64,000 nt of DNA from Entrophospora sp. SA101 (lineage: Eukaryota; Glomeromycota; Glomeromycetes; Entrophosporales; Entrophosporaceae). The notes beneath the pieces were generated by a model. The model worked only from the letters and a program-made list of their open reading frames with translations. It was not told the origin of the DNA and did not search any database. Where the stretch lies: assembly GCA_958430865.1 (NCBI GenBank), contig CAUDNR010002779.1, positions 119,366 through 183,365 on the forward strand, written 5' to 3'. Numbering within the stretch: the first letter of the stretch is position 1; the number at the start of each line of letters is the position of its first letter. Of the stretch, positions 1 through 50,449 are shown one piece after another. A program made the position numbers and the translations under genes.

Positions 1-2197
1 ACAATAATAATTAGGAATTATTAGAAACTTGTTAGTTACTTGCAAAGGTCAAAAGGAAATAATGCTTAGTAATATGATCCATGACATTTATTTTTTAGTG
101 CAAAGGTAAATACCGATTTATTATCGAGGGAACTTTGTTATTTTGAGAGAATATTAATTGTTAACTTTATTTAGGAAATCAATTTGTATATTTAGAAATA
201 ATTTAATATTATTATTACAAGAAGAAAAATAGTAAAATTTCCACGTGTTTTTTCACAAGTTTAAAATAAAATAATCAAAATAATAGAATAACAAAACAAC
301 TTAAGTGAATGTAAAAATGATTTAATCATACATTTTATAATTTATAATTTTTCTCTTAAACCATTTTTATTAAATTTGCCAGAATTTGCATGCTTCTTTC
401 TCCTCTCCACAAACACCAACAACACCAACATCGCCGCCGCGCCCAATTAATCAATTAATTAAATAGCAATTAAATAATTTCTTTGCGATAATTAATGATT
501 TAATTAAAATTAATAAATTTCTTAAACCAATCAATCAATCAACCGACCATCAACGAAAACAAACAAAACATTCGGAATCAATCAATCAATCAATAAATCA
601 ATCAAATTTCGATTATTATTATTGTTGTCATGATACTTTATTATTTGGTCATGTTATTCAGGAATTCTAAAATTTCTATAATTTAACAGGAAATTTATTG
701 GTTTAATAAGATTTTTTATAAAAAAAGATTGTCCGCATGAATGTGCCAAACTTCCGAGAGAGTGAGTGTGCCTTTTCTTTTGCTCTTTGATTGACATTTA
801 TGTATACGGAGTATATATATATGTACGAATGATTCGATATGATATGTATAGATAGAATAATAGAATAAAAAACCAATTGATCCACCCACCATTCATTCTT
901 TAGATTGTGTTGGGAGAATAAAGAAGAAGAAACAAAGAGCTTTAAACCGCTATACTGTATTAGAATCTATAACAATCAATTTCAATTTTATGCTAAAATG
1001 TCATAATAAAATAGTACAATAAATAAATATATTAAGCAATGTTACACCAACTTATTATTAATTTTATTAATTTTATTAATTCAAAAAAAAAAAAAAAATA
1101 ATAAAAAATTACCATTTTTATCATCTTGGTAAAATAAAAACAAAAACACAGCGTTAATGCTCGGATCATGACGCTGCTTGTTACCGCCGTTATTAAATAG
1201 CAAGGTGATTTGATTAGAAATTAAATTAATTAATTAAAACCTTTATATTTTTACTTAATTCACAAAAATTATTAATAGTAGTGTATTTGTTACAAAAACA
1301 AAATTATTATATTAATGCTAATTACTATTATTGATTAATTAGGCTATGTATTTTAATTAATTAGTGGTGTGTTCGTTAATTAATTAATTAATTAATTCGT
1401 GGTTAATTAATTTAATTAATCACTAATTAAACATTTGACAGTTTAATTTTACACTCTAATAATGATTCATAATTAATAAGCGATTGATTAGTTGAGCGAG
1501 CGAGAGAGAGGGTGAGTGAGTGGTGGATGATGATTTATTTTGTTGGTTAAATGAGAACAACAATATACTTGATGTTGATTGATATCTAATATTTTTAATT
1601 AAATCATGTGAAATCATAAAAAAATTGTATTCAAAGCAAGAAACATTCGAAATTTTGTGTGTGTGTTTGAGTGTTAGTGTAACATTACTTTAAAAAAAAT
1701 TTCAATTATTTATCTACCATATATGTAAATGACAAACAAATTAATAGGATACTTTTTTCAAAACTGATTGCCTAATATTTTGTTCCATTTAGGAAAAACT
1801 AGAAAAAAAAAAAAAAAAAAAAGGTGACAGTCAATTAATTAACAGTTATGATTACAATCGCATGATCATTTTGGTATGTTTAATAATAACTATTGACAGA
1901 TGACCATAATCGTAATTACTATTAAAATCATACCACAAATAACCATAATTATCATTACCAATATTCTTTCTTTTTCCCCCATCCCTGCCTCTTTATTCCA
2001 TCGATTTGTTCTTTTTCTCATAATGAATAACTAATTATAACAATTCAGTAATATTAGTGATAATAATAATAGTATAATAACTGCAAAGATGATCATCACC
2101 ACCACAACCACACTGAATTAATAATATAAAGTATGTAAAATAGACGAAGGGAATTGATTGTGATGATTGCGGAGATGTTTATTACTACGATGATTAA

Positions 2198-2243
<46 letters not shown>

Positions 2244-5200
2244 ATGTGGAATATGTAATACGTTTTCAAATTTTATTTTTTATCTACCAAATTAGGAAGT
2301 GATGCAATAATATGGGCTCAATACGGAGTTTACTTAATGGAGGAAATTGTAATAGAGAATAACACAATCGAATGAATGGGATAGGAAAAATAAACAACCA
2401 GCAAAGCAATATGGAAATAGTAAATAAAAAAAATTAATGAATAAAGCAAAAAGAAGAAGAAGAAGGAATTAATTAGTAAATTAATTAATTTAAAAAAAAA
2501 AACAATTGAAAAATGCTTTGTATGGCAATTTCTAATAGTCTTAGGATATTGATTGCCTATAGATAGGGAGAATGCAAAATTTAGAAATAGGCGAGAAATT
2601 CATATTAGGATGAATAAAAAAAGAAAAAGCCGTTGTCATTTTTTGGATTGAATTGGGAATTGAATTGGGAATTGAATTGGTTTGGATTGGTCTAGTTTGG
2701 TTGGAGTGTGAGAGTGAGTGGGAATGAGTGATAGAGACACGTACTCCATAACAACTGATTGGTAATATCCAAATTATCAATAACCGAGAGAATTTTTACA
2801 AACAAATAATAATCGTCATTTTATTTTAACAAAAATAAATATTCCCATCATTCCCATTAATATTCATTCATTCCCATTATTAATATTATTAATATATGTA
2901 AATTTTTTAATTTTAAACAAAAAAATTTTTTTTTTCACGATCAAATTAGATTGTTTTACACTTTTAACACTAAATGCTATCAAGTCTTATCGTAGTAGCA
3001 ATTATAGTAATTAATGATATTATTACTATTAATAATTAACTAATTAGTAATTAATTAAATAACCGAGAGAGTCCATTCATCAACACATTTTTTAAACTAA
3101 ACAAGAACACTCTTCAAAAATCCATTGTATGTGTTTCTGAATTCAAAAAATTCATTGTGTCGTTATGATCGGCCTTTTCTTTTCAACCCCGCATTCCCTT
3201 TTTTTGTCTTTCCGCTCTCCGTTTTTAATTATAATTATAATTATTATTATTATTATTATTATTATGTTTGTCAAAAAGGTTTTAGTTTGAATTGTATCCA
3301 GATTTAGGTATATAAGTAAAAAATTCCGGGATTTGAGTTTTATATAGTGTGAGTGTGAGTGTGTGTAATATTTCTTACAAACAAGGTTCTTTTTTCAAAA
3401 AAAGCGTCCGGAAAAAAGATCATGGAAAAAAGATTTCAAAGAAAAAAATTCTTGTGTAAAATTTTTTGTTTGCACAATAATAGTTATTGTTATTATTTAT
3501 TTATATTATTATATTTGTTTATAACAGAAAAATCCTTTTTCGAAATTTTTTACTTTAAATCGTTAATTCCGTTAACACAAAACACAACAACTTTCCATAT
3601 TAATACAATAAAAAATCTTTCATGCAGGTTATTATAGTATATATTATAAGCCAAGTAATTATTAAAGTTTTATTAGTTTTAGAAATGTTTCGCCTATTTA
3701 ATGATTTTAGATTTTGGTTAATTAGTCAAGAGTTTAAATAATAATGGGCGAGACGGACAACCAAAAAATAAAGTTAATATTATTTTGTTTTGTTACAGTT
3801 GAGGATAAATCTTTTTATATTTTTTTCATATCCATGTAATTTTTTTTTTTTTTTGGGCGTATTTTAAAACAGCGCCATATTGTAAAAGGTTTCATTTACG
3901 ATGATGATAATGCGGAGTGTATTATAGAGGGAGTGTGAGTGAGAGAGAGAGAGAATATATTATTATAACATTTGCATGTGTGTATAATTGATGAACATTG
4001 GTAGTTATATCATATCTTAAATTTTTGCCATTTATTATTATTTATTACATGCTATCATTAAATATTTTCCTCTTTTGCCCACCCGTTCTCACTCACACCC
4101 ACACATTTGCTCTTTATTGACTATTTATTTGGATAAATATAATGTACCACAAATTTCCATTTAAAAGTCTAAATGGTTTTAAAGTTTTATTAAAGTTCAC
4201 ATGATTCAACGATCGAAAAATGCATGCTGCATATATATACACCAGATATGTGTTCTACGATTTTTGGTTTAATACACTCTTTTTAGAGTTTGCAGATAGC
4301 CTTTGAATGGATGAATAGGAGAAAGAGCGTGTGATTAGGGATGAGGACGAGGACGAGAATGATAATGAGGACGAGGATGAAGGATGAGGATGAGGGAGAT
4401 TTCGTGTCTAATTTATTATTTTGCATTTTACCATTTTAACATCACTTATTAACCTTAAATGCTAACAATATTAAAAGGTAAATAAATCCAATTAATAAAA
4501 GAATTAAGAACGCGTAAATATTTGTTGGGGTTTTTTTAAAAAAAAAAGAATAATTAATTTTCTAAAAATCATAAATAAATAAACAATGTGTAATTTGTTT
4601 TTAAACTCTTGAACTCATAATTGGTTTCCGTGTTGCACCAACCGTTAGCCTTGGCTTCCTATACAAATAAACACAAATGTGTTCACATACATGCTGATAT
4701 TGGGATAGTCATCGTGCTCTATCTTATATATATGAATCGACCAGTTGTCATGGTTGTCATCTACGTAGCTAAATGACCCCCCATGCATTATACGATGATC
4801 CAAAAATATCGTGTATCTTCTATTTCTACCCTTCCCCGAGTGAGAAAACTGCATGAATAATAAGCCTCGAAGATGTTAAATTGGATCACGATTTTGTATT
4901 ATCCATCAACGCCTATTAAACAACTTTTTTGAATATTTAATTAATCACAATAAGCAATGATCTGTAAATCGTGTGATTTAAACCGGAAAAAAATAATAAA
5001 ATCAAATCCGGTTGGGTATCATTTGACTAAATAACAACAACAACAACAATAATAAGACAACCGGATATTATCCGGAACAGATTTCTCGAACAGCTTCCCT
5101 TCCTCTAATTTAAAAGTTTTTTTTTTACAACTATGCAGATCATTGGTAATTTTGGTAATTTTTTAATTATTGTTATATTATTGTAATTATTGTAACTATA

Positions 5201-5758
5201 TTAATAATAATAATAACTGTTAAAGGAATTTGGCAATCTGATAAGCCTGAAAATTTTTTTTGAGAAAATGCTAGTAGCAAAAAGGCAGAGTATGTTATAC
5301 TAATATGCTGTATAAATGTTTTCGTTTCATTGTACTTAACTTAATTTATCCAACATCATTTGAGATTAACCTGATGTCATTCGAGTTTTTTATTTTCTCG
5401 TTTTTTCAAAAAGGGAAAATCCGTATTTCTTTTGATCCAATCAATCTTTGTCAAGCTCTTCTTTGTCTTTTAGCGTTTTAAGTGGTTTCATATTTAACGC
5501 TACTTTATTATTATTATAGTCATTGATTAAAATTTCAACAATGCAAAAAAATTTTATTTAATCAAAACAAAAAAGAAAGGCCCAGAATTTGAGTAAGGAT
5601 CTTGTGGAATATATATTTAGTCATATATGTTTATGAAAATCTTGTTCTTAATCTTGATTTAGTAATAACTTTATTTTAAATGAAACAATATCAGATATTA
5701 TTATAATGTCAATCAGAATTTTAATTCATTCAATGAATTTTGGAAATCTATTTAATTT

Positions 5759-5791
<33 letters not shown>

Positions 5792-8700
5792 CATTTATGT
5801 ACTAAGCCTTTTTTAAAAGAAAAAAATACAAGTTAAATTTTAAGGCGATATGCGATGATAGATTGGTACGTTGACGTATGTATGGGACGTGTTATTGTAA
5901 AAATAATGACGCGACAAAAAAAGAGTATCATTGTAGAAATCATTCAAACAAACCAACTAATCGGTTGATTATAATAATGATAATAATAATAATAAATAAT
6001 AATTAAATAACAATAATTTAAAGCAATTATTACATTAGTAGTGGTTTATGTATTGGGTGGGTATTCTCTCCCTCCTCCTCTGGATAACTAAAATACGTAT
6101 TTACTATATTTACTTTTATTAAAAATTTTTTAAGGCTTTTTTCAAAGCATTGAAATACACTTATATTATAATAATAATAACCCAAAAATACAATTTTCTT
6201 CAACGTTATAGACGTGTGCTATAAAAAACAACATGCCACCCACCACCGATACGTTCTAAAAATAAATGCGTATTTCTTATATACGATTTGCACTTTTTTT
6301 AATTTTCACACAAGGTACGGAATAAGCGAGTAACAGGTGCGAAATATGTGGCATACTGAAAGTGTACGCTTTTGTCTCCATACAACAAAACATACGGGAA
6401 ACCCTCATTTTTATTCATTATTATCTATAAAATCTATATCATCATCATCTTCATCAATAAACACAGAAATTGGAACATAGTTTTTCGAAAATTCTACATG
6501 ACAAAAAAATAAATAAAACATCATTTTGTGGTTTAAACTCTTTACAACTTTTTTAGTTTTTAAAAAAAAAGCAAACTTTTATTTGTTGATGGCGATTTTT
6601 ATGATTTTTATTTAATTATTATTATTTAGAATTATGAAAATTCACATGTTTAATATTTAAAAACCATAGATTCAATATTTCTTCCAGGCGCTGACTGTAT
6701 TTATGAATTCATAAGGCTAATACAACCAATATTTCTCGATTGATTTTAATATATTATATACATAATTATTGGTGGAATTGTTAAACTCATAATTACGTTA
6801 CAATAATTAATAAATTTTCGAGTTTCTAGGTAATGAATGATCTGAACTTCCATGTCTTTTATTAATTATCATAGGTGGTGACGACAGCAGTGCCTTCATT
6901 CAACATAATTCAATGCCATTGGTGAAAATGCGACAAAGCCTTTTATTATCGGCTATGCGAATAGAAAAAAAATAACGTTAGATAAAAATAATTCATATTC
7001 AAGAATATTAATAATTACAAATTATCCTATACTTTAGCTGGTATAACAAAAGTTGATGTTGTCATCATTATTATTATTCGAGTATGATACTTTACTCTTT
7101 ACTATTACCCTTGTTATTTGGGTTGGGCAGGGACGCAGATCATATAATATAAATAGTAGGTATGTTTTTTTATAAATTGATAAAAAAATATACTAATACA
7201 TATCTTTATTTAAGCTATTTTATATATCGAGACAAAATTATAACAACCCTTGTAAAATAAATATATATTTTTTAATTTATTTTTATATATATTACAAAAT
7301 ATTTTATACAGGGAATGAAATAAGAAGTTGATTGCAAGCATACCATACTATATATATAATGAACAAAATCAAGAGCTTATCAATAAAGTATCGTTTTTGA
7401 TGATGCTACGTGATCTCGATTGTAATAATTAAATTCCTTTCAGGATTGTGTAACAAGTGACAACGATTGTAAGTTAGAGGAATTTAAAATAATATTAACA
7501 AATCACTAAACTAATACCAGTGATGGCTTTATTTAAATGGCGTCAACTATAACAATCAACAACATTTTATAACTATAATGCGCAATTGTGTATTGTTCAT
7601 GTTTATCAATGGAATAATAATAACAAAATGTAGCAGCTATTTTGTTTATCTAACAAGGAGATCTCTGATTTTGTATAATAATATGGTGATATATAGGTAA
7701 CGCGAATTCACGATCGTAACACAATAGATATAGTAGGATTTTAACATTGTTAATATTGATTTATTTTTCGATAACGTTAGTAACGCGAGCAGTGGCCGTA
7801 ACACGTTATTATAACCAAAAGTATGATAGAACAATAAAGTAATTAATATCTATCTATGATACACTCACAATTTACTATACTGTTACAGTCTGATTGGATC
7901 GTCAGTAACATGCTATTTCCGTATATAAAGTACGCACAGTTTAATTATTATTAGTAATGTTCAGTATCAATATGGATTCATTAGTGTTTCCATGCCGGTA
8001 CCGTTCTCATATTTAACACGGAAATGTGCGCCTTTTATAGGCATCAGTTATTGTTTTGAATATATTTTTTCTTTGATGATGCTACACCAAATGGAGTTCC
8101 CTGTTATTATTACTATTACTATTATTATTACTAATACAAATAATTCCGGAAAACATACGGAGGATTACTGTTTTTCCATATTAATATTAATACGTTTTCC
8201 GGTAATTACCGTACAGAAAATGTATTATACAGAATACAAATACTAATACTAATACTAATACTAATTATAATACTAATACGGACTTGCGGGAAATATAAAT
8301 TCCGTTTGTGTTCTATTAGTATGTACAAAAAAACCAACCTACGGGAAAATGCGCTCTTTCACTAAAAAAGATTTCGTACCATTTCTGTATTAGTGTTAGT
8401 ATTAGCATGCTTTCGGTAGATCTTTCCCGTAAAAAAATTTTTATGGATAAATTTTGAAATCTTGCAATTTCCATGATGTTTAAGTCAAATTAGGACGATG
8501 ATGATTTTTTTTTTGTCGAGTGTTCTTTACTTTCATCGTTTAACAAAAATCTAACAAGGGAGTTTATAAATAATTTTTTATATTACATATATGGCGCGAG
8601 TCATCCTCTTGTTGCGCAGCACGGCCAAATTTCAAATATGATGCCAAATCTTTAAAATGCCAAGTCTCAATAACCCAAATAAGATAGAGTTTTCTAGCCA

Positions 8701-8860
8701 TAACTTAACAATAAGTTTTAGATCGTGTTAATATGAAAAAAAAAAAGTTATAGTAGTTTAAAGTTATGAATACAATCACCAAAAATAAAATAAAATGACA
8801 AGGCTCGATAACCAAACAAGCTAGAACAAAGACTTTCTGTTTTATTCTAAAGAAATCATA
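1..8860. other. Non-coding AT-rich region, left arm
   Basis: I see no gene that I can support. Open frames are short, lack family resemblance and mostly begin at non-ATG codons. The stretch contains homopolymer runs, ATTA/TTAA-rich tracts, a (TG)n microsatellite at 2201-2240, a GATGAG/GACGAG minisatellite at about 4339-4395, an (AT)n run near 5760-5790 and an ACTAAT tandem array at about 8241-8265. A possible 3'-terminal exon on the minus strand (6411-6493) has an acceptor-like AG and an acidic tail, but no upstream exon was found. Confidence 0.6.
2201..2240. repeat. (TG)n microsatellite
   Basis: Twenty uninterrupted TG dinucleotides. The copy in the other arm (46106-46145) has the same length. 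For a fast-mutating locus this argues that the two arms are extremely young, or come from the same reads. Confidence 0.95.
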
Positions 8861-8864
8861 TGTA

Positions 8865-8958
8865 GTGATGGGCGTTTGACTGTTATTAAAAAAATTTTTT
8901 TACAACAATATAATGATATCATATAATTGTTATATATAACAGTCACACCGCCATCATC
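8865..8958. mobile_element. Short fold-back element (MITE-like)
   Basis: A 94-base segment with imperfect terminal inverted repeats of about 22 bases. The left end begins GTGATGGGCG and the right end finishes CGCCATCATC. It is flanked by TA on both sides (863-864 within 8863-8864, and 8959-8960). The centre is itself nearly palindromic around a GATATC. A TA flank is typical of Tc1/mariner-type elements, so that class is inferred. Mirror copy at 39388-39481. Confidence 0.5.
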
Positions 8959-9643
8959 TATTAATTATATGGGAAAGCTTTTTAATAGAAAAAGAATCAT
9001 TATCTGATTTTTGAAACTTTTAAAGAGATAAACATCTCAAACTTTTATTATGCAAAGCAGGTATGATCTCCAATCCAAAATATTCCAAGTGATAGTTGTA
9101 ACATTAATCGGAATGCTTGTTTCACATTATGGCTGAAAAGCTCCGTAATTGCCGATCTTACAAGTCATAAGTTTTTGACTTTGGGTTTTTAAAAAATAAC
9201 AAAAAGTTATAAAGTCCTGCGCGCCGTATTCTTTTCTTCCGAATTTTCCCTATTGTAATTGAATAAAACTTTTCTTCAAAATTATCTCTTCGCTCGAGAA
9301 CAATGCGGGTGTTTAGAATTCCAGGACACTTGCAAAGAAAATATTTACTAATACTTTGCAAAAGTATTTAACATTGACCAGTGCAAGAAGAATTATTTGA
9401 AATCGTGGTAGTTTAATTGTGTATGGCAGTAATCAAAGTGCATATTAACACACTTTTTATGCAAAGTTCACATATAGTCCAATGGCTATATAGAACGAAT
9501 TTTCTTGTATGATCTGAATTAAAAATTGATATAATAAACTTTTTATCATGTTGCGCGAAAATTTTTATTTCGGTCAGAGATAACGTTAATTATTTAAAGA
9601 GGAACTATCTTTTGGAATAAATGGTGTCATAATAAAATTATTA

Positions 9644-9800
9644 TTATTTAAATCTTGGTCCAAATTCTTTTTTCTTGAGCTCTAATTCATATCTAGTCTT
9701 TTAACGTTCCAACTCTAATTAATTCTTTACATTTTATTTCAAGTTCTTTTTCTTTAAAAATCAATTCTATCAGCTCTTGCCTTATTATTGTTATTATTAT
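9644..9800 (-). pseudogene. Decayed 3' end of a charged coiled-coil gene
   Basis: On the minus strand a lysine/glutamate-rich stretch (QELIELIFKEKELEIKCKEL) is followed, after a change of frame near 9690, by TRYELELKKKEFGPRFK and a TAA stop at 9644-9646. The two pieces read as one amphipathic C-terminus only if a frameshift is accepted. I do not recognise the family. The upstream frame (9827-10123) has no clear relation. It is probably a relic, and a repeat-associated gene is possible. Confidence 0.4.
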
Positions 9801-10645
9801 TGTTATTTGTAATATTCGATTTACGTTTATTGCATCATTGTCTCGGGTGTATGGAAGTAAATACCTTGTCGAATGGATCTTGTTGTACAAGCCTCAAGCC
9901 CATTATTCCTCCCAGTAGTGCTACTACCAACATTGCATGAACATTTCACCATCCAGTTTACAAGATCTGTCTGTATATATAAAAATATTATCAAATATTG
10001 TTTATTAAATATATAAAACCAAAAAATAGTAAAATTTACTATAAAATGGCAGCATTTAAAAAGACTGGTTTTTTCCATAATGAATTGCTCTCGCATGAGC
10101 AGATTGGTATCACGGGCTGCCATGTTCTAAATATCAGATGGAATTTTGCAAAACAGCATTATTTAAGAGTTGTCACGTAAGTTATGGTCTTTGCATTTAA
10201 TTAGCCCTGACGTGAATAATGCAATTTCTTCTTTTAATACCCTGTCATTGGAATTAGAATTGTTGGAATTATTCTAAATAATAAAGTGTTAATCGATAAA
10301 ATTTTATTTAAACAATTAAATATATGATCATAATAAATGCAAAACCTTTCGAATCTCTTCCATCAGAATTTTCAAAATCCCATTCATAATAATCGAACAA
10401 AGATTCATCTATTGTGACAAAGAAATTTATTTAAATTTTTGGATAAGATGGAAATATCATACTAATTGTATAACATATAAAATTGTGACATAAACTAGCT
10501 ACTGGACTACACAACCTACACCTATCATGCTATACTAAATAAATGTATGCTCGTGGTATTAGTATATTATAATATATCAGTGCCATCGAAAAATGTTCAA
10601 TTTATTAAAAAAAATTCATAGTTTCAATAATTAGCTTCATGTAGG

Positions 10646-10767
10646 TGAATTTCTAACAGAAGTTGAAGGCCAATTAAAAGTTGAAGAAGAGGATGCTTGT
10701 GTAGTAATAAAGCCTGATGTGAATCGGGATAGATGGTAGACTTCAGAAGACTTTGTTGAATAGGTAA
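10646..10767 (+). pseudogene. Possible DDE-transposase relic
   Basis: One frame reads about 30 residues ending KPDVNRDRW, an in-frame TAG, TSEDFVE, and a second TAG. Fungal pogo/Tc1-like DDE transposases often have a KPG-x-N-x-DGWW-T-x-(E/D)-x-(L/F)-V-x-Q segment. With the two stops read as W and Q the fit would be good. Both stops differ from W (TGG) and Q (CAG) codons by single transitions. The assignment rests on memory of the family pattern and is tentative. Confidence 0.3.
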
Positions 10768-11308
10768 TATAGTTGAACTTGTTGAACTTAACTAAAATTT
10801 ATTTAAAAAAATTATTTATAATCAGCATGTGATTGATCTACCGAAATAATTTTATGTTGCACGCTTCTCGCAACTGTTATCGATTAGATAACATAATTCA
10901 ATACCATTTTCAAGCAATTAAATAAAAAGTTCTGCGATGCCTCTTTTTTTTTTCAGTATCAAAATTTGAAACCACAAAATGCCTCCTATTGAAGAAAACA
11001 AACCATTAAAATGATGACATGTGAAACGAAACAAAAATTTGTAATTCAACTGGCTTGCCGATCAGTATTGCACCTTATCATTGTCGATCATGCTAAGAAT
11101 TCCAAATATATTTATATGAACTTTATTATCTTTAAGTTAAAGGGAATTTTTATTTAAATTTTAAATTTTAAACTTTTCCACGTGTATTATTATGTAACAT
11201 CATGTCATCACGTAATACGATTAATAAAATTGGTAATTAACATTTGATTTTTTTTTCTTTTTAAATATATAATCAATATTAATAATATTTTATAGCAAAT
11301 ATAAAAAA

Positions 11309-13393
11309 ATGAATAAAGACAATATTCAAAATTCTGATCGAATTGTAATTTATACAAGAAATTTAATGAAACAATTTCCTGGTACAAAGGATAACAACGA
11401 AGTAAGTTACTATTATTATTGATATGATATAAAAAAATTTTATATTGATATTAATAATTTAAATATTTTTTAGTTAATTAGTTCTTTAGAGAATCTATTA
11501 AAAACGGTGATACTCAAGTATAATCTTGATTTGGACATAATTGAAATTCCCGAACCATCACTCTTAGATCATAAAATCACTGATGATAGAAGTGATTACG
11601 AAATCACAGGTTAATAAAATACAATATATTATATTTGTATGAATTTTTGTTTTTTGTAAAAAAAAAAATCGTTAATATTTTCTTTATTCTATTTTTAGCT
11701 AAATTATTTCTTTTAACATCAGAGAAATCATTCATTTCACAATCATTATATTATTTATTTAGATTACTTGGTATTAATTACTTGGATACATTGATCATTC
11801 ATTTTCATGGCCTTTTATACACCGATAAAGATCAACTAGTAGGGGAAGATGGGAAAGATGGGAAAGATGAGAAAGATGAGAAGATTGAAGATGAAAACAC
11901 AGAAAACAAAGAAGAAAAAAAAGAAGAAAAAAAAGTGGATTTTAATTATATAATAAATGTATGGCAAGAATTAGAAAAATTATATGATGATAGATATATT
12001 GGCAAATTAGGTGTAAGTGAATTTAATATGAATAGATTGAAGAAACTAATTGATGCTACAAAGGTGAGAAGAATTTTATTTCTATTGCGATATGAATTAT
12101 ACTTTAAAAAATTATTTATATATTTAATAATTTATTTATTTGCAGGTTCAACCAAAGATCGATCAGATTAATATAAAGAACCTTTGTTCTGTATCTCGTG
12201 AATTAATTGAATTTGGCAAGAAAAATGATGTAGAATTATTGACTCATAGTGATTCTGATGGTAAATTCATTTAATTATTTTTATGTGAATTTTTTTATAA
12301 AACAATTAATTAAAATGATACCTTGCTAATAATAATAATAATATAATATCAATTATCAGTAATTTTACCACAAGAGAATTTTCACAAGATTATAAAGGGA
12401 TATACTGATTCAATGAAAAAAGCCACCACTGATAAAGTGTTAGATGGTTCTGATGAGAATGAATATGTGCCACAATGGGTAATAAAATATTCTGTGGAGA
12501 TTAAATGCAGTGGCCTTTTATACACCGATAAAGATCAACTAGTAGGGGAAGATGGGAAAGATGGGAAAGATGAGAAAGATGAGAAGATTGAAGATGAAAA
12601 CACAGAAAACAAAGAAGAAAAAAAAGAAGAAAAAAAAGTGGATTTTAATTATATAATAAATGTATGGCAAGAATTAGAAAAATTATATGATGATAGATAT
12701 ATTGGCAAATTAGGTGTAAGTGAATTTAATATGAATAGATTGAAGAAACTAATTGATGCTACAAAGGTGAGAAGAATTTTATTTCTATTGCGATATGAAT
12801 TATACTTTAAAAAATTATTTATATATTTAATAATTTATTTATTTGCAGGTTCAACCAAAGATCGATCAGATTAATATAAAGAACCTTTGTTCTGTATCTC
12901 GTGAATTAATTGAATTTGGCAAGAAAAATGATGTAGAATTATTGACTCATAGTGATTCTGATGGTAAATTCATTTAATTATTTTTATGTGAATTTTTTTA
13001 TAAAACAATTAATTAAAATGATACCTTGCTAATAATAATAATAATATAATATCAATTATCAGTAATTTTACCACAAGAGAATTTTCACAAGATTATAAAG
13101 GGATATACTGATTCAATGAAAAAAGCCACCACTGATAAAGTGTTAGATGGTTCTGATGAGAATGAATATGTGCCACAATGGGTAATAAAATATTCTGTGG
13201 AGATTAAATGCAGGGGAATAGTTGCCAATAAAGGGTAAGTGATCTATCATGATAATATGTTGCAATTAATGTATTATATTAATATTATTCTTATAATATC
13301 ATCACAATAATTATTAGATATATTGTTATGGCAAGTAAATCTGAATCTAGTAATCTAGAAAGAAAATATAATTTGGGCGAAAAATTTTTATAA
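11309..13393 (+). CDS. GCLM: Glutamate-cysteine ligase modifier subunit, with internal duplication
   Basis: This encodes the regulatory subunit of glutamate-cysteine ligase, the first enzyme of glutathione synthesis in the cytosol. It has an aldo-keto-reductase-like fold and tunes the catalytic subunit. The normal exons are 11309-11401, 11474-11609, 11699-12063, 12146-12260, then the last two exons ending at 13234 and 13318-13393. Family landmarks are a LGINYLDTLIIH strand, the GKLGVSEFN segment, a KIDQINIKNLC segment, ELLTHSDSDG, and a C-terminal YVPQWVIKYSVEIKCRG. An acidic/lysine-rich insert of about 30 residues precedes the LEKL helix. Unlike the right-arm copy, this one has a 703-base tandem repeat of part of exon 3 through exon 5. 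The repeat keeps frame and splice sites and would add 174 residues (492 instead of 318). Confidence 0.85.
11808..12510 (+). repeat. 703-bp tandem duplication, first unit
   Basis: This unit is followed directly by an identical unit at 12511-13213. It covers the second half of GCLM exon 3, exon 4 and most of exon 5, with their introns. Its coding part is 256+115+151 = 522 bases, a multiple of three. The junction reads KC-SGLLY, fusing exon 5 back into exon 3 in frame. The right arm has a single copy. Confidence 0.95.
12511..13213 (+). repeat. 703-bp tandem duplication, second unit
   Basis: Second identical unit of the left-arm tandem duplication. After base 13213 the sequence runs on into the normal end of exon 5 (coding RGIVANKG) and a strong GTAAGT donor. 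Confidence 0.95.
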
Positions 13394-30814: not shown

Positions 30815-30928
30815 ATGTCAACATTAAACAATTATATTTTGTTTTAGGATTATATTCAAGAGATGCCTTAATAAATAAATAGAAATAATAATAATAATAA
30901 ATACACATATAAACAATTAATTAGCTAA

Positions 30929-32177: not shown

Positions 32178-32618
32178 CTCGGTGATTAATTTGTTCTTTA
32201 ATTTTGATATATGTTCACTTTGTTTGTAAAACCCACCAAACTCTTTTATGTAATTTAAGATGCTTTGAGGACAGCACTAAGGTTTCTGGTCGAAGTTACT
32301 TCTCTTAGTAATATTATTATTCATAGTGACGGACAACAAAAAGAAAATTCTTTTTAATTAACAGCTAATATTCCTTAAAAATTTATTAATATAGTTTGCG
32401 ATCAGGCTGGTTCAAAAATAATGTAATTTGTCCAAATTGGATATTTTTAAAAAGAAATACTTAAAACACTATTATTGAGGGTTATTCTTTTTTAAACAAA
32501 AAGAAACCACCGAGAAAATCTTTTTCTCCTATGGAGATTTTTTTGATGAACAGAACTCTGATGATGTCTTCTGTATAAATATATATATACTGTAAACCAA
32601 GATTAATAAAAACAATTT

Positions 32619-37037: not shown

Positions 37038-37578
37038 TTTTTTATATTTGCTATAAAATATTATTAATATTGATTATATATTTAAAAAGAAAAAAAAATC
37101 AAATGTTAATTACCAATTTTATTAATCGTATTACGTGATGACATGATGTTACATAATAATACACGTGGAAAAGTTTAAAATTTAAAATTTAAATAAAAAT
37201 TCCCTTTAACTTAAAGATAATAAAGTTCATATAAATATATTTGGAATTCTTAGCATGATCGACAATGATAAGGTGCAATACTGATCGGCAAGCCAGTTGA
37301 ATTACAAATTTTTGTTTCGTTTCACATGTCATCATTTTAATGGTTTGTTTTCTTCAATAGGAGGCATTTTGTGGTTTCAAATTTTGATACTGAAAAAAAA
37401 AAGAGGCATCGCAGAACTTTTTATTTAATTGCTTGAAAATGGTATTGAATTATGTTATCTAATCGATAACAGTTGCGAGAAGCGTGCAACATAAAATTAT
37501 TTCGGTAGATCAATCACATGCTGATTATAAATAATTTTTTTAAATAAATTTTAGTTAAGTTCAACAAGTTCAACTATA

Positions 37579-37700
37579 TTACCTATTCAACAAAGTCTTC
37601 TGAAGTCTACCATCTATCCCGATTCACATCAGGCTTTATTACTACACAAGCATCCTCTTCTTCAACTTTTAATTGGCCTTCAACTTCTGTTAGAAATTCA
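37579..37700 (-). pseudogene. Possible DDE-transposase relic, right-arm copy
   Basis: Reverse-complement copy of the relic at 10646-10767 carrying the same two in-frame stops. Confidence 0.3.
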
Positions 37701-38545
37701 CCTACATGAAGCTAATTATTGAAACTATGAATTTTTTTTAATAAATTGAACATTTTTCGATGGCACTGATATATTATAATATACTAATACCACGAGCATA
37801 CATTTATTTAGTATAGCATGATAGGTGTAGGTTGTGTAGTCCAGTAGCTAGTTTATGTCACAATTTTATATGTTATACAATTAGTATGATATTTCCATCT
37901 TATCCAAAAATTTAAATAAATTTCTTTGTCACAATAGATGAATCTTTGTTCGATTATTATGAATGGGATTTTGAAAATTCTGATGGAAGAGATTCGAAAG
38001 GTTTTGCATTTATTATGATCATATATTTAATTGTTTAAATAAAATTTTATCGATTAACACTTTATTATTTAGAATAATTCCAACAATTCTAATTCCAATG
38101 ACAGGGTATTAAAAGAAGAAATTGCATTATTCACGTCAGGGCTAATTAAATGCAAAGACCATAACTTACGTGACAACTCTTAAATAATGCTGTTTTGCAA
38201 AATTCCATCTGATATTTAGAACATGGCAGCCCGTGATACCAATCTGCTCATGCGAGAGCAATTCATTATGGAAAAAACCAGTCTTTTTAAATGCTGCCAT
38301 TTTATAGTAAATTTTACTATTTTTTGGTTTTATATATTTAATAAACAATATTTGATAATATTTTTATATATACAGACAGATCTTGTAAACTGGATGGTGA
38401 AATGTTCATGCAATGTTGGTAGTAGCACTACTGGGAGGAATAATGGGCTTGAGGCTTGTACAACAAGATCCATTCGACAAGGTATTTACTTCCATACACC
38501 CGAGACAATGATGCAATAAACGTAAATCGAATATTACAAATAACA

Positions 38546-38702
38546 ATAATAATAACAATAATAAGGCAAGAGCTGATAGAATTGATTTTTAAAGAAAAAG
38601 AACTTGAAATAAAATGTAAAGAATTAATTAGAGTTGGAACGTTAAAAGACTAGATATGAATTAGAGCTCAAGAAAAAAGAATTTGGACCAAGATTTAAAT
38701 AA
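38546..38702 (+). pseudogene. Decayed coiled-coil gene 3' end, right-arm copy
   Basis: Identical reverse-complement copy of the relic at 9644-9800, with the same frameshift. The decay therefore predates the duplication of the arms, or both arms derive from one sequence. Confidence 0.4.
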
Positions 38703-39387
38703 TAATAATTTTATTATGACACCATTTATTCCAAAAGATAGTTCCTCTTTAAATAATTAACGTTATCTCTGACCGAAATAAAAATTTTCGCGCAACATGA
38801 TAAAAAGTTTATTATATCAATTTTTAATTCAGATCATACAAGAAAATTCGTTCTATATAGCCATTGGACTATATGTGAACTTTGCATAAAAAGTGTGTTA
38901 ATATGCACTTTGATTACTGCCATACACAATTAAACTACCACGATTTCAAATAATTCTTCTTGCACTGGTCAATGTTAAATACTTTTGCAAAGTATTAGTA
39001 AATATTTTCTTTGCAAGTGTCCTGGAATTCTAAACACCCGCATTGTTCTCGAGCGAAGAGATAATTTTGAAGAAAAGTTTTATTCAATTACAATAGGGAA
39101 AATTCGGAAGAAAAGAATACGGCGCGCAGGACTTTATAACTTTTTGTTATTTTTTAAAAACCCAAAGTCAAAAACTTATGACTTGTAAGATCGGCAATTA
39201 CGGAGCTTTTCAGCCATAATGTGAAACAAGCATTCCGATTAATGTTACAACTATCACTTGGAATATTTTGGATTGGAGATCATACCTGCTTTGCATAATA
39301 AAAGTTTGAGATGTTTATCTCTTTAAAAGTTTCAAAAATCAGATAATGATTCTTTTTCTATTAAAAAGCTTTCCCATATAATTAATA

Positions 39388-39481
39388 GATGATGGCGGTG
39401 TGACTGTTATATATAACAATTATATGATATCATTATATTGTTGTAAAAAAATTTTTTTAATAACAGTCAAACGCCCATCAC
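39388..39481. mobile_element. Short fold-back element, right-arm copy
   Basis: Reverse-complement copy of the 94-base fold-back element at 8865-8958, with the same TA flanks. Confidence 0.5.
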
Positions 39482-42400
39482 TACATATGATTTCTTTAGA
39501 ATAAAACAGAAAGTCTTTGTTCTAGCTTGTTTGGTTATCGAGCCTTGTCATTTTATTTTATTTTTGGTGATTGTATTCATAACTTTAAACTACTATAACT
39601 TTTTTTTTTTCATATTAACACGATCTAAAACTTATTGTTAAGTTATGGCTAGAAAACTCTATCTTATTTGGGTTATTGAGACTTGGCATTTTAAAGATTT
39701 GGCATCATATTTGAAATTTGGCCGTGCTGCGCAACAAGAGGATGACTCGCGCCATATATGTAATATAAAAAATTATTTATAAACTCCCTTGTTAGATTTT
39801 TGTTAAACGATGAAAGTAAAGAACACTCGACAAAAAAAAAATCATCATCGTCCTAATTTGACTTAAACATCATGGAAATTGCAAGATTTCAAAATTTATC
39901 CATAAAAATTTTTTTACGGGAAAGATCTACCGAAAGCATGCTAATACTAACACTAATACAGAAATGGTACGAAATCTTTTTTAGTGAAAGAGCGCATTTT
40001 CCCGTAGGTTGGTTTTTTTGTACATACTAATAGAACACAAACGGAATTTATATTTCCCGCAAGTCCGTATTAGTATTATAATTAGTATTAGTATTAGTAT
40101 TAGTATTTGTATTCTGTATAATACATTTTCTGTACGGTAATTACCGGAAAACGTATTAATATTAATATGGAAAAACAGTAATCCTCCGTATGTTTTCCGG
40201 AATTATTTGTATTAGTAATAATAATAGTAATAGTAATAATAACAGGGAACTCCATTTGGTGTAGCATCATCAAAGAAAAAATATATTCAAAACAATAACT
40301 GATGCCTATAAAAGGCGCACATTTCCGTGTTAAATATGAGAACGGTACCGGCATGGAAACACTAATGAATCCATATTGATACTGAACATTACTAATAATA
40401 ATTAAACTGTGCGTACTTTATATACGGAAATAGCATGTTACTGACGATCCAATCAGACTGTAACAGTATAGTAAATTGTGAGTGTATCATAGATAGATAT
40501 TAATTACTTTATTGTTCTATCATACTTTTGGTTATAATAACGTGTTACGGCCACTGCTCGCGTTACTAACGTTATCGAAAAATAAATCAATATTAACAAT
40601 GTTAAAATCCTACTATATCTATTGTGTTACGATCGTGAATTCGCGTTACCTATATATCACCATATTATTATACAAAATCAGAGATCTCCTTGTTAGATAA
40701 ACAAAATAGCTGCTACATTTTGTTATTATTATTCCATTGATAAACATGAACAATACACAATTGCGCATTATAGTTATAAAATGTTGTTGATTGTTATAGT
40801 TGACGCCATTTAAATAAAGCCATCACTGGTATTAGTTTAGTGATTTGTTAATATTATTTTAAATTCCTCTAACTTACAATCGTTGTCACTTGTTACACAA
40901 TCCTGAAAGGAATTTAATTATTACAATCGAGATCACGTAGCATCATCAAAAACGATACTTTATTGATAAGCTCTTGATTTTGTTCATTATATATATAGTA
41001 TGGTATGCTTGCAATCAACTTCTTATTTCATTCCCTGTATAAAATATTTTGTAATATATATAAAAATAAATTAAAAAATATATATTTATTTTACAAGGGT
41101 TGTTATAATTTTGTCTCGATATATAAAATAGCTTAAATAAAGATATGTATTAGTATATTTTTTTATCAATTTATAAAAAAACATACCTACTATTTATATT
41201 ATATGATCTGCGTCCCTGCCCAACCCAAATAACAAGGGTAATAGTAAAGAGTAAAGTATCATACTCGAATAATAATAATGATGACAACATCAACTTTTGT
41301 TATACCAGCTAAAGTATAGGATAATTTGTAATTATTAATATTCTTGAATATGAATTATTTTTATCTAACGTTATTTTTTTTCTATTCGCATAGCCGATAA
41401 TAAAAGGCTTTGTCGCATTTTCACCAATGGCATTGAATTATGTTGAATGAAGGCACTGCTGTCGTCACCACCTATGATAATTAATAAAAGACATGGAAGT
41501 TCAGATCATTCATTACCTAGAAACTCGAAAATTTATTAATTATTGTAACGTAATTATGAGTTTAACAATTCCACCAATAATTATGTATATAATATATTAA
41601 AATCAATCGAGAAATATTGGTTGTATTAGCCTTATGAATTCATAAATACAGTCAGCGCCTGGAAGAAATATTGAATCTATGGTTTTTAAATATTAAACAT
41701 GTGAATTTTCATAATTCTAAATAATAATAATTAAATAAAAATCATAAAAATCGCCATCAACAAATAAAAGTTTGCTTTTTTTTTAAAAACTAAAAAAGTT
41801 GTAAAGAGTTTAAACCACAAAATGATGTTTTATTTATTTTTTTGTCATGTAGAATTTTCGAAAAACTATGTTCCAATTTCTGTGTTTATTGATGAAGATG
41901 ATGATGATATAGATTTTATAGATAATAATGAATAAAAATGAGGGTTTCCCGTATGTTTTGTTGTATGGAGACAAAAGCGTACACTTTCAGTATGCCACAT
42001 ATTTCGCACCTGTTACTCGCTTATTCCGTACCTTGTGTGAAAATTAAAAAAAGTGCAAATCGTATATAAGAAATACGCATTTATTTTTAGAACGTATCGG
42101 TGGTGGGTGGCATGTTGTTTTTTATAGCACACGTCTATAACGTTGAAGAAAATTGTATTTTTGGGTTATTATTATTATAATATAAGTGTATTTCAATGCT
42201 TTGAAAAAAGCCTTAAAAAATTTTTAATAAAAGTAAATATAGTAAATACGTATTTTAGTTATCCAGAGGAGGAGGGAGAGAATACCCACCCAATACATAA
42301 ACCACTACTAATGTAATAATTGCTTTAAATTATTGTTATTTAATTATTATTTATTATTATTATTATCATTATTATAATCAACCGATTAGTTGGTTTGTTT

Positions 42401-42554
42401 GAATGATTTCTACAATGATACTCTTTTTTTGTCGCGTCATTATTTTTACAATAACACGTCCCATACATACGTCAACGTACCAATCTATCATCGCATATCG
42501 CCTTAAAATTTAACTTGTATTTTTTTCTTTTAAAAAAGGCTTAGTACATAAATG

Positions 42555-42587
<33 letters not shown>

Positions 42588-45500
42588 AAATTAAATAGAT
42601 TTCCAAAATTCATTGAATGAATTAAAATTCTGATTGACATTATAATAATATCTGATATTGTTTCATTTAAAATAAAGTTATTACTAAATCAAGATTAAGA
42701 ACAAGATTTTCATAAACATATATGACTAAATATATATTCCACAAGATCCTTACTCAAATTCTGGGCCTTTCTTTTTTGTTTTGATTAAATAAAATTTTTT
42801 TGCATTGTTGAAATTTTAATCAATGACTATAATAATAATAAAGTAGCGTTAAATATGAAACCACTTAAAACGCTAAAAGACAAAGAAGAGCTTGACAAAG
42901 ATTGATTGGATCAAAAGAAATACGGATTTTCCCTTTTTGAAAAAACGAGAAAATAAAAAACTCGAATGACATCAGGTTAATCTCAAATGATGTTGGATAA
43001 ATTAAGTTAAGTACAATGAAACGAAAACATTTATACAGCATATTAGTATAACATACTCTGCCTTTTTGCTACTAGCATTTTCTCAAAAAAAATTTTCAGG
43101 CTTATCAGATTGCCAAATTCCTTTAACAGTTATTATTATTATTAATATAGTTACAATAATTACAATAATATAACAATAATTAAAAAATTACCAAAATTAC
43201 CAATGATCTGCATAGTTGTAAAAAAAAAACTTTTAAATTAGAGGAAGGGAAGCTGTTCGAGAAATCTGTTCCGGATAATATCCGGTTGTCTTATTATTGT
43301 TGTTGTTGTTGTTATTTAGTCAAATGATACCCAACCGGATTTGATTTTATTATTTTTTTCCGGTTTAAATCACACGATTTACAGATCATTGCTTATTGTG
43401 ATTAATTAAATATTCAAAAAAGTTGTTTAATAGGCGTTGATGGATAATACAAAATCGTGATCCAATTTAACATCTTCGAGGCTTATTATTCATGCAGTTT
43501 TCTCACTCGGGGAAGGGTAGAAATAGAAGATACACGATATTTTTGGATCATCGTATAATGCATGGGGGGTCATTTAGCTACGTAGATGACAACCATGACA
43601 ACTGGTCGATTCATATATATAAGATAGAGCACGATGACTATCCCAATATCAGCATGTATGTGAACACATTTGTGTTTATTTGTATAGGAAGCCAAGGCTA
43701 ACGGTTGGTGCAACACGGAAACCAATTATGAGTTCAAGAGTTTAAAAACAAATTACACATTGTTTATTTATTTATGATTTTTAGAAAATTAATTATTCTT
43801 TTTTTTTTAAAAAAACCCCAACAAATATTTACGCGTTCTTAATTCTTTTATTAATTGGATTTATTTACCTTTTAATATTGTTAGCATTTAAGGTTAATAA
43901 GTGATGTTAAAATGGTAAAATGCAAAATAATAAATTAGACACGAAATCTCCCTCATCCTCATCCTTCATCCTCGTCCTCATTATCATTCTCGTCCTCGTC
44001 CTCATCCCTAATCACACGCTCTTTCTCCTATTCATCCATTCAAAGGCTATCTGCAAACTCTAAAAAGAGTGTATTAAACCAAAAATCGTAGAACACATAT
44101 CTGGTGTATATATATGCAGCATGCATTTTTCGATCGTTGAATCATGTGAACTTTAATAAAACTTTAAAACCATTTAGACTTTTAAATGGAAATTTGTGGT
44201 ACATTATATTTATCCAAATAAATAGTCAATAAAGAGCAAATGTGTGGGTGTGAGTGAGAACGGGTGGGCAAAAGAGGAAAATATTTAATGATAGCATGTA
44301 ATAAATAATAATAAATGGCAAAAATTTAAGATATGATATAACTACCAATGTTCATCAATTATACACACATGCAAATGTTATAATAATATATTCTCTCTCT
44401 CTCTCACTCACACTCCCTCTATAATACACTCCGCATTATCATCATCGTAAATGAAACCTTTTACAATATGGCGCTGTTTTAAAATACGCCCAAAAAAAAA
44501 AAAAAATTACATGGATATGAAAAAAATATAAAAAGATTTATCCTCAACTGTAACAAAACAAAATAATATTAACTTTATTTTTTGGTTGTCCGTCTCGCCC
44601 ATTATTATTTAAACTCTTGACTAATTAACCAAAATCTAAAATCATTAAATAGGCGAAACATTTCTAAAACTAATAAAACTTTAATAATTACTTGGCTTAT
44701 AATATATACTATAATAACCTGCATGAAAGATTTTTTATTGTATTAATATGGAAAGTTGTTGTGTTTTGTGTTAACGGAATTAACGATTTAAAGTAAAAAA
44801 TTTCGAAAAAGGATTTTTCTGTTATAAACAAATATAATAATATAAATAAATAATAACAATAACTATTATTGTGCAAACAAAAAATTTTACACAAGAATTT
44901 TTTTCTTTGAAATCTTTTTTCCATGATCTTTTTTCCGGACGCTTTTTTTGAAAAAAGAACCTTGTTTGTAAGAAATATTACACACACTCACACTCACACT
45001 ATATAAAACTCAAATCCCGGAATTTTTTACTTATATACCTAAATCTGGATACAATTCAAACTAAAACCTTTTTGACAAACATAATAATAATAATAATAAT
45101 AATAATTATAATTATAATTAAAAACGGAGAGCGGAAAGACAAAAAAAGGGAATGCGGGGTTGAAAAGAAAAGGCCGATCATAACGACACAATGAATTTTT
45201 TGAATTCAGAAACACATACAATGGATTTTTGAAGAGTGTTCTTGTTTAGTTTAAAAAATGTGTTGATGAATGGACTCTCTCGGTTATTTAATTAATTACT
45301 AATTAGTTAATTATTAATAGTAATAATATCATTAATTACTATAATTGCTACTACGATAAGACTTGATAGCATTTAGTGTTAAAAGTGTAAAACAATCTAA
45401 TTTGATCGTGAAAAAAAAAATTTTTTTGTTTAAAATTAAAAAATTTACATATATTAATAATATTAATAATGGGAATGAATGAATATTAATGGGAATGATG

Positions 45501-46102
45501 GGAATATTTATTTTTGTTAAAATAAAATGACGATTATTATTTGTTTGTAAAAATTCTCTCGGTTATTGATAATTTGGATATTACCAATCAGTTGTTATGG
45601 AGTACGTGTCTCTATCACTCATTCCCACTCACTCTCACACTCCAACCAAACTAGACCAATCCAAACCAATTCAATTCCCAATTCAATTCCCAATTCAATC
45701 CAAAAAATGACAACGGCTTTTTCTTTTTTTATTCATCCTAATATGAATTTCTCGCCTATTTCTAAATTTTGCATTCTCCCTATCTATAGGCAATCAATAT
45801 CCTAAGACTATTAGAAATTGCCATACAAAGCATTTTTCAATTGTTTTTTTTTTTAAATTAATTAATTTACTAATTAATTCCTTCTTCTTCTTCTTTTTGC
45901 TTTATTCATTAATTTTTTTTATTTACTATTTCCATATTGCTTTGCTGGTTGTTTATTTTTCCTATCCCATTCATTCGATTGTGTTATTCTCTATTACAAT
46001 TTCCTCCATTAAGTAAACTCCGTATTGAGCCCATATTATTGCATCACTTCCTAATTTGGTAGATAAAAAATAAAATTTGAAAACGTATTACATATTCCAC
46101 AT

Positions 46103-46148
<46 letters not shown>

Positions 46149-48345
46149 TTAATCATCGTAGTAATAAACATCTCCGCAATCATCACAATCAATTCCCTTC
46201 GTCTATTTTACATACTTTATATTATTAATTCAGTGTGGTTGTGGTGGTGATGATCATCTTTGCAGTTATTATACTATTATTATTATCACTAATATTACTG
46301 AATTGTTATAATTAGTTATTCATTATGAGAAAAAGAACAAATCGATGGAATAAAGAGGCAGGGATGGGGGAAAAAGAAAGAATATTGGTAATGATAATTA
46401 TGGTTATTTGTGGTATGATTTTAATAGTAATTACGATTATGGTCATCTGTCAATAGTTATTATTAAACATACCAAAATGATCATGCGATTGTAATCATAA
46501 CTGTTAATTAATTGACTGTCACCTTTTTTTTTTTTTTTTTTTTCTAGTTTTTCCTAAATGGAACAAAATATTAGGCAATCAGTTTTGAAAAAAGTATCCT
46601 ATTAATTTGTTTGTCATTTACATATATGGTAGATAAATAATTGAAATTTTTTTTAAAGTAATGTTACACTAACACTCAAACACACACACAAAATTTCGAA
46701 TGTTTCTTGCTTTGAATACAATTTTTTTATGATTTCACATGATTTAATTAAAAATATTAGATATCAATCAACATCAAGTATATTGTTGTTCTCATTTAAC
46801 CAACAAAATAAATCATCATCCACCACTCACTCACCCTCTCTCTCGCTCGCTCAACTAATCAATCGCTTATTAATTATGAATCATTATTAGAGTGTAAAAT
46901 TAAACTGTCAAATGTTTAATTAGTGATTAATTAAATTAATTAACCACGAATTAATTAATTAATTAATTAACGAACACACCACTAATTAATTAAAATACAT
47001 AGCCTAATTAATCAATAATAGTAATTAGCATTAATATAATAATTTTGTTTTTGTAACAAATACACTACTATTAATAATTTTTGTGAATTAAGTAAAAATA
47101 TAAAGGTTTTAATTAATTAATTTAATTTCTAATCAAATCACCTTGCTATTTAATAACGGCGGTAACAAGCAGCGTCATGATCCGAGCATTAACGCTGTGT
47201 TTTTGTTTTTATTTTACCAAGATGATAAAAATGGTAATTTTTTATTATTTTTTTTTTTTTTTTGAATTAATAAAATTAATAAAATTAATAATAAGTTGGT
47301 GTAACATTGCTTAATATATTTATTTATTGTACTATTTTATTATGACATTTTAGCATAAAATTGAAATTGATTGTTATAGATTCTAATACAGTATAGCGGT
47401 TTAAAGCTCTTTGTTTCTTCTTCTTTATTCTCCCAACACAATCTAAAGAATGAATGGTGGGTGGATCAATTGGTTTTTTATTCTATTATTCTATCTATAC
47501 ATATCATATCGAATCATTCGTACATATATATATACTCCGTATACATAAATGTCAATCAAAGAGCAAAAGAAAAGGCACACTCACTCTCTCGGAAGTTTGG
47601 CACATTCATGCGGACAATCTTTTTTTATAAAAAATCTTATTAAACCAATAAATTTCCTGTTAAATTATAGAAATTTTAGAATTCCTGAATAACATGACCA
47701 AATAATAAAGTATCATGACAACAATAATAATAATCGAAATTTGATTGATTTATTGATTGATTGATTGATTCCGAATGTTTTGTTTGTTTTCGTTGATGGT
47801 CGGTTGATTGATTGATTGGTTTAAGAAATTTATTAATTTTAATTAAATCATTAATTATCGCAAAGAAATTATTTAATTGCTATTTAATTAATTGATTAAT
47901 TGGGCGCGGCGGCGATGTTGGTGTTGTTGGTGTTTGTGGAGAGGAGAAAGAAGCATGCAAATTCTGGCAAATTTAATAAAAATGGTTTAAGAGAAAAATT
48001 ATAAATTATAAAATGTATGATTAAATCATTTTTACATTCACTTAAGTTGTTTTGTTATTCTATTATTTTGATTATTTTATTTTAAACTTGTGAAAAAACA
48101 CGTGGAAATTTTACTATTTTTCTTCTTGTAATAATAATATTAAATTATTTCTAAATATACAAATTGATTTCCTAAATAAAGTTAACAATTAATATTCTCT
48201 CAAAATAACAAAGTTCCCTCGATAATAAATCGGTATTTACCTTTGCACTAAAAAATAAATGTCATGGATCATATTACTAAGCATTATTTCCTTTTGACCT
48301 TTGCAAGTAACTAACAAGTTTCTAATAATTCCTAATTATTATTGT
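39482..48345. other. Non-coding AT-rich region, right arm
   Basis: Mirror image of 1-8864 with the same content, including the microsatellite (as CA repeats at 46106-46145) and the ACTAAT array (about 40081-40105). No supported gene. Confidence 0.6.

Positions 48346-50411: not shown

Positions 50412-50449
<38 letters not shown>

What the first reader, a model, noticed from the sequence alone, without database searches (positions are those of the whole stretch)
1..48345. Giant near-perfect inverted repeat (arms at least 18 kb, spacer about 11 kb)
1-18764 and 30285-48345 are reverse complements in constant register, apart from one 703-base step. Even a 40-base TG microsatellite has equal length in both arms. 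Real palindromes of this size and identity are rare outside sex chromosomes and organelles. They imply a very recent event or ongoing gene conversion, and would be prone to hairpin formation and deletion. The alternative is an assembly artefact in which one locus (or two near-identical nuclear haplotypes) was placed twice.
Basis: partly seen in the sequence, partly recalled or inferred. Interest (0 to 1): 0.9.

Follow-up and report, generated by a model that had tools for sequence, protein, structure and literature searches.

The report
Duplicated assembly block, not a palindrome
A fungal genome sequence seems to contain a giant mirror-image stretch, but the evidence points to one stretch of DNA having been written into the assembly twice, as seems to have happened to many other genes in the same assembly.

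Summary
The inverted repeat is in the sequence and is larger than reported. The left arm is C1407:106861-138133 (from 12.5 kb left of the window to window 18768). The right arm is window 30281-60851. That is about 31 kb per arm with no base substitution. The only differences are one T in a poly-T run and a 703-bp unit doubled in the left arm. The last 3.15 kb of the contig is a flipped extra piece.

The genome is the public assembly of the mycorrhizal fungus Entrophospora sp. SA101. Published SA101 work amplified single nuclei by MDA, assembled and merged them, and scaffolded with Nanopore data. Its authors report false duplication in one workflow (PMC6987183).

By my reading, 11 of 17 proteasome gene groups have equal-scoring extra copies. 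Besides C1407, 29 contigs hold equal-scoring pairs: 19 direct only, 10 with an inverted pair. Sampled blocks are 99.99-100% identical. The inner junction lies inside a ~0.7-kb dispersed repeat, where the arm end meets three different neighbours.

Verdict: assembly artefact, about 0.9. No reads were available to prove it.

The parts
1..18768 (+). Part of the left arm inside the window (the arm begins at C1407:106861, 12.5 kb left of the window)
30281..60851 (-). Right arm, reverse complement of the left arm
18769..30280. Spacer, 11.5 kb. It contains a kinase-like frame just after the N run (read by eye, not confirmed by a family search)
27055..27761 (.). Run of 707 N inside the spacer (assembly gap or withheld stretch; cannot be told apart here)
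11808..13216 (+). 703-bp tandem duplication present in the left arm only; the right arm and contig C650 have one unit
18228..18943 (.). Dispersed repeat of about 0.7 kb that contains the left inner junction (18768/18769)
30149..30821 (.). Same dispersed repeat at the right inner junction (30280/30281)
60847..64000 (+). Flipped terminal piece: direct copy of C1407:103708-106861, joined over 5 shared bases (GGATG); the contig ends exactly at the partner breakpoint

Best explanation
The structure is an assembly artefact. One stretch of the fungal genome (C1407:103708-138133) was written twice into one contig, the second time mostly in reverse. The likely route is this. MDA-amplified single nuclei gave many redundant contigs of the same locus. 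Merging or scaffolding them joined one copy to another through a dispersed ~0.7-kb repeat at the inner end, so that arm, spacer and reversed arm became neighbours. The left junction (18768/18769) may be genuine; the right one (30280/30281) is probably the false join. Shown here: the duplication, the near-total identity, the repeat at the junction, the same arm end with three neighbours, and similar redundancy elsewhere in the assembly. Inferred: which step (contig merging, Canu on MDA Nanopore reads, Chromosemble scaffolding, or MDA template switching) made each join. The confidence is for 'artefact' as a whole, and so includes the MDA-only rival below.
For: (1) Identity: no substitution over about 31 kb per arm. 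(2) Redundancy elsewhere: 11 of 17 proteasome gene groups have equal-scoring extra copies, 4 of 17 on the same contig (grouped by me). A sampled direct pair on C1256 shares 17.4 kb with 0 mismatches and 1 gap; a sampled inverted pair on C1683 shares 9,197 b with none, up to the ends of the stretches taken. 29 contigs besides C1407 hold equal-scoring pairs, 10 of them with an inverted pair. (3) The inner junction lies inside a dispersed repeat. The arm end is joined there to the left spacer (C1407 and C650), the right spacer (C1407) and a third context on C2057. C650 carries the left junction at 100%. One search showed no second contig with the right junction (40 of 175 candidates scored). (4) Source: SA101 was sequenced from MDA-amplified nuclei. 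The authors report that duplicated genes rise as more single-nucleus assemblies are combined in workflow 2, and ascribe this to contigs not being merged properly. Real identical copies would not be expected to rise that way. C1683 is 258,935 b long; in their Table 1 only assembly 2n has a contig that long. (5) The 3.15-kb terminal flip is joined over 5 shared bases and stops exactly at its partner breakpoint; over 85% of MDA rearrangements were inversions with deletions, and over 70% of junctions primed at 2-21 nt matches (PMC1855051 abstract).
Against: No reads were available, so depth and junction-spanning reads are untested. The pooled assembly 3n is reported to have few duplicated core genes, but a short-read assembly would also collapse real identical copies, so that does not separate the readings. 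The authors' read-based size estimate of 119 Mb is larger than 3n (70.8 Mb); they ascribe the smaller size of 3n to repeats. The size and contig number held here (101.35 Mb, 2,123) match none of the seven rows of Table 1, so the link to 2n rests on maximum contig length and redundancy. The copies are not letter-for-letter clones: the 703-bp unit, one poly-T base, a 1,138-bp stretch missing from C650 and 3 mismatches in the flipped piece show partly separate assembly, which real copies would also show. Five of 17 proteasome groups have a single copy. 19 of the 29 contigs have direct pairs only, so MDA palindromes alone do not explain the pattern. The kinase-like frame beside the N run suggests, without proof, that the spacer itself is continuous.
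Confidence: 0.9

Rival explanations
1. A real, very recent inverted duplication of about 31 kb (a giant palindrome) in the fungal chromosome, formed through the dispersed repeat and not yet diverged, or kept identical by gene conversion.
For: The arms are continuous sequence with sharp edges. The small differences (703-bp unit, one poly-T base) show that the copies are not simple text clones. A dispersed repeat at the junction could also mediate real recombination. Few duplicated core genes in assembly 3n does not exclude it, because identical copies collapse in short-read assemblies.
Against: Similar redundancy affects core proteasome genes on many contigs, and the authors saw duplication grow with the number of single-nucleus assemblies merged. 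One search showed no second contig with the right junction (40 of 175 candidates scored).
Confidence: 0.06
2. A sub-case of artefact: one MDA chimera. Polymerase copied arm and spacer, then switched to a displaced strand at the repeat and copied the arm back; the palindromic molecule was sequenced and assembled faithfully.
For: MDA chimeras were mostly inversions with intervening deletions (PMC1855051 abstract). 44-48% of MDA PacBio reads in an Arabidopsis test held palindromes, against 0.5% in unamplified DNA (PMC6218980). The terminal 3.15-kb flip has a 5-base match at the join.
Against: 31-kb arms plus an 11.5-kb spacer would need a molecule of more than 70 kb; average MDA read lengths in that test were about 9 kb. 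Direct pairs outnumber inverted ones on the contigs read. More likely a contributor to the misjoins than the whole cause.
Confidence: 0.15
3. Two nuclear haplotypes (heterokaryon alleles) of one locus placed head to head in one contig.
For: A third copy (C650) lacks a 1,138-bp stretch and the 703-bp doubling, so structural variants of the locus exist in the data.
Against: No substitution between the arms over about 31 kb. C650 equals the left arm exactly over 7.5 kb, including 1.3 kb of spacer.
Confidence: 0.03

Closest known systems
False duplication in merged single-nucleus MDA assemblies (SA101 workflow 2, PMC6987183; passages and the Results section read)
   Same: Same strain; redundant copies of genes expected to be single-copy; a contig longer than 220 kb
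   Different: The passages read do not describe inverted joins; the size and contig number held here differ from its Table 1
Palindromic MDA (WGA) artefacts in long reads (PMC6218980, Background and first part of Results read; PMC13265396 and PMC1855051, abstracts only)
   Same: Inverted copies of one locus, a short match at a join, strain reported as amplified by MDA
   Different: Those are palindromes within reads; here the arms are 31 kb, the spacer is 11.5 kb, and direct duplicates are also common
Real large palindromes, such as those of primate Y chromosomes (recalled, no call)
   Same: Long arms of very high identity with a shorter spacer
   Different: Here core genes elsewhere in the assembly have similar extra copies, and the right junction has no second support in the contigs seen

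Membership tests
Assembly false duplication / misjoin | Copies essentially identical, including non-coding DNA | tested here: met
   No substitutions in about 31 kb; 17.4-kb and 9.2-kb blocks elsewhere with none
Assembly false duplication / misjoin | Redundancy is widespread and hits genes expected to be single-copy | tested here: met
   11 of 17 proteasome gene groups with equal-scoring extra copies (grouped by me). A second family, PF00118, did not complete
Assembly false duplication / misjoin | Joins lie in dispersed repeats, with one unique end attached to several neighbours | tested here: met
   Inner junction only:
Assembly false duplication / misjoin | Read depth shared between copies; no reads across the false join | not testable with these tools
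   No reads are held
Real chromosomal palindrome | Both arm-spacer junctions supported by independent sequence | tested here: inconclusive
   Left junction also on C650; one search listed no other copy of the right junction (40 of 175 candidates scored)
Real chromosomal palindrome | Same arrangement in a relative or second assembly | not testable with these tools
   Relatives came only as proteins; no second SA101 assembly was found in the tools used
MDA inverted chimera | Inverted join with a deletion and a short match at the junction | tested here: inconclusive
   Met for the terminal 3.15-kb flip (5 bases); the inner junction instead lies in a ~0.7-kb repeat
MDA inverted chimera | Sample amplified by MDA | tested here: inconclusive
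   PMC6987183 says so for strain SA101; that the held assembly derives from those data is inferred from strain name and contig lengths

The most novel reading that the evidence does not exclude
A real 31-kb, substitution-free palindrome in a mycorrhizal fungus whose genome is full of recent local direct and inverted duplications of core genes, which would imply continuing amplification or gene conversion in its nuclei.
Probability: 0.05. Interest if true: 0.75.

Novelty: not a real feature. Interest (0 to 1): 0.08.

Why it matters
It warns users of the public Entrophospora sp. SA101 assembly: gene copy numbers, family expansions, synteny and palindromes in it should not be trusted without read depth. 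If the structure were real, it would be one of very few giant perfect palindromes outside sex chromosomes and organelles (recalled).

Tried and rejected
Ciliate nuclear genome: rejected. Long frames under code 6 suggested it at first, but frames of up to 518 aa are open under the standard code and the best protein matches are Glomeromycota, with Entrophospora first.

Entrophospora candida as the source: rejected in favour of SA101. The first 150 residues of the GATA-factor gene match the SA101 protein at 100% and the E. candida protein at 98%, and an SA101 protein lies on a 25,735-base contig, the length of C650.

N run as proof of a false join: not used. It cannot be told from a withheld stretch, and a kinase-like frame lies beside it (by eye). 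C650 and C1256 begin with N runs of 9,637 and 1,833 bases, which may be masking.

Transposon explanation of the 1,138-bp stretch missing from C650 (window 3645-4782): rejected. The search found no full copy beyond the two arms, and the join shows only 2 shared bases.

Few duplicated core genes in assembly 3n as proof: dropped on checking. A short-read assembly collapses identical copies, real or not. For this reason I lowered the artefact confidence from 0.93 to 0.9 and raised the real-palindrome rival from 0.04 to 0.06 (and the novel case from 0.04 to 0.05). The MDA-only rival, a part of the artefact share, went from 0.2 to 0.15.

CCT/TCP-1 copy count (PF00118): not completed.

Literature, open-licence PMC library, 9 of 10 searches used: searches returned no paper; one search listed two papers, whose titles and abstracts concern lichen mitochondria and cowpea; some searches gave the papers cited or nothing used. 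PMC10512289 (passages) was looked at and not used.

Full report
What was checked. The window is C1407:119366-183365, the last 64 kb of a 183,365-base contig, in a held genome of 101.35 Mb and 2,123 contigs. Self-BLAST of the window, and of the window plus the 30 kb to its left, confirms the inverted repeat and enlarges it. In window coordinates the left arm runs from -12504 (C1407:106861) to 18768 and the right arm from 30281 to 60851. Between 13217 and 18768 the mirror is exact, 5,552 bases. From 12510 outwards only one T in a poly-T run differs in about 25 kb. The 703-base step is a tandem duplication present in the left arm alone; contig C650 and the right arm have one unit, identical to the left arm's second unit.

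The contig end. Window 60847-64000 repeats C1407:103708-106861 in direct orientation with 3 mismatches, so the piece next to the arm is flipped. The join shares 5 bases (GGATG), and the contig stops exactly at the coordinate where the arm begins. This is what a template-switch chimera, or a graph piece placed the wrong way round, would look like.

Other copies. C650 (25,735 bases, the first 9,637 reading N) equals the left arm exactly over 7.5 kb, including 1.3 kb beyond the inner junction, and lacks a 1,138-base stretch that both arms have. It therefore supports the left junction. A query across the right junction (window 29900-30700) listed no other contig with that join; 40 of 175 candidates were scored.

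The inner junction. Both inner ends lie within a ~0.7-kb dispersed repeat (window 18228-18943 and 30149-30821). The last 1.25 kb of contig C2057 equals the arm with 2 mismatches, and then passes through the same repeat into sequence that has no match in the window (C2057:37000-44778 tested). One arm end with three neighbours, each reached through the repeat, is the usual signature of joins made at a repeat.

Elsewhere in the assembly. Proteasome genes (PF00227) fall into 17 groups by my reading. Eleven have two to four equal-scoring copies (in one, C335/C876, only one of two exons scores equally), one has a near-equal pair and five have one copy. In four groups copies share a contig: C2 (orientations +, -, +), C1683 (inverted), C714 (direct, 2.2 kb apart, which could be an ordinary tandem duplication) and C1256 (four direct copies). 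C1256 blocks agree over 17.4 kb with no mismatch and one gap. C1683's inverted copies agree over 9,197 bases without a difference, up to the ends of the stretches taken. Same-contig equal-scoring pairs more than 1 kb apart were read from the tables, giving 27 contigs, 18 with direct pairs only and 9 with an inverted pair. Two more come (C2026 direct, C1550 inverted), making 29, 19 and 10; C1407 itself is not counted. Pairs with unequal scores (for instance C1697 and C1317) were dropped. The tables were read by eye, the lists are capped, and many of the queries were dispersed repeats, so the counts show that such pairs are common, not their true rate.

Which organism and which data. The GATA-factor gene near window 58277-60072 matches Entrophospora sp. 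SA101 at 100% over its first 150 residues and E. candida at 98%. An SA101 protein sharing 97% identity over 18% of a weakly aldo/keto-reductase-like exon of the arm lies on a 25,735-base contig, the length of C650. Strain SA101 was sequenced by sorting nuclei, MDA, Illumina assembly per nucleus with Lingon merging (workflows 1 and 2) or pooling first (workflow 3), and scaffolding with a Canu assembly of MDA Nanopore reads (PMC6987183, passages and the Results section). The authors report growing numbers of duplicated genes as more single-nucleus assemblies are combined in workflow 2, and ascribe them to contigs not being merged properly. They report few duplicated core genes in pooled assembly 3n, but a short-read assembly would collapse identical copies whether real or not, so I do not lean on that. 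A 258,935-base contig here (C1683) exceeds the largest contig of every row of their Table 1 except 2n (338 kb). Size and contig number match no row, so the exact deposited version stays open.

Interpretation. The simplest account is that one locus was represented by several redundant contigs and two were joined in opposite orientation through the dispersed repeat. MDA chimeras probably contributed: they were mostly inversions with deletions and short priming matches (PMC1855051, abstract), and 44-48% of MDA PacBio reads held palindromes in an Arabidopsis test, against 0.5% in unamplified DNA (PMC6218980). They are unlikely to be the whole story, because direct duplicates are more frequent than inverted ones on the contigs read. 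A real palindrome would have to coincide with similar identical duplications of core genes on many other contigs. Without reads this remains an inference, held at about 0.9.

Noticed in passing
G000 contigs C792 (216900-222600, locus L041) and C1734 (47600-49900, locus L042); similar matches on C1138, C624, C1611, C293, C2013, C1204: Bacterial-type genes that use TGA as tryptophan lie in the fungal assembly: IleRS-like and ValRS-like frames of 544 and 741 aa with 8 and 19 codons read otherwise than by table 11. This suggests contigs of a mollicute-like endobacterium of the fungus; that such endobacteria occur in these fungi is recalled, not from a call.
   Followed up: partly
L041 (C792:216900-222600): The IleRS-like frame stops at about profile position 551 of 861. 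Two genes resembling MADS methyltransferase (MAD2) and specificity (MAD5) subunits, both below their curated cut-offs, follow before the next synthetase match at C792:217027-217317. Real insertion or another misjoin was not resolved.
   Followed up: partly
L042 (C1734:47600-49900): The ValRS-like protein carries a Nudix/MutT-like stretch (about residues 213-320) ahead of its best ValRS match (361-739).
   Followed up: no
window 3645-4782 compared with C650: A 1,138-bp stretch with no full copy found beyond the two arms is absent from the C650 copy, with a 2-base match at the join: a variant between nuclei, an MDA deletion or an assembly gap.
   Followed up: partly
C1407:85089-87197 and window 19867-22000: A 2.1-kb piece of the spacer has a 95% identical direct copy about 54 kb to the left on the same contig, more diverged than the arms.
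   Followed up: no
SA101 protein P0005 (contig of 194,603 bases): This public predicted protein contains a piece of the sodium/calcium exchanger twice, on both sides of a GATA-factor piece, as expected if the gene model crosses a duplicated join.
   Followed up: no
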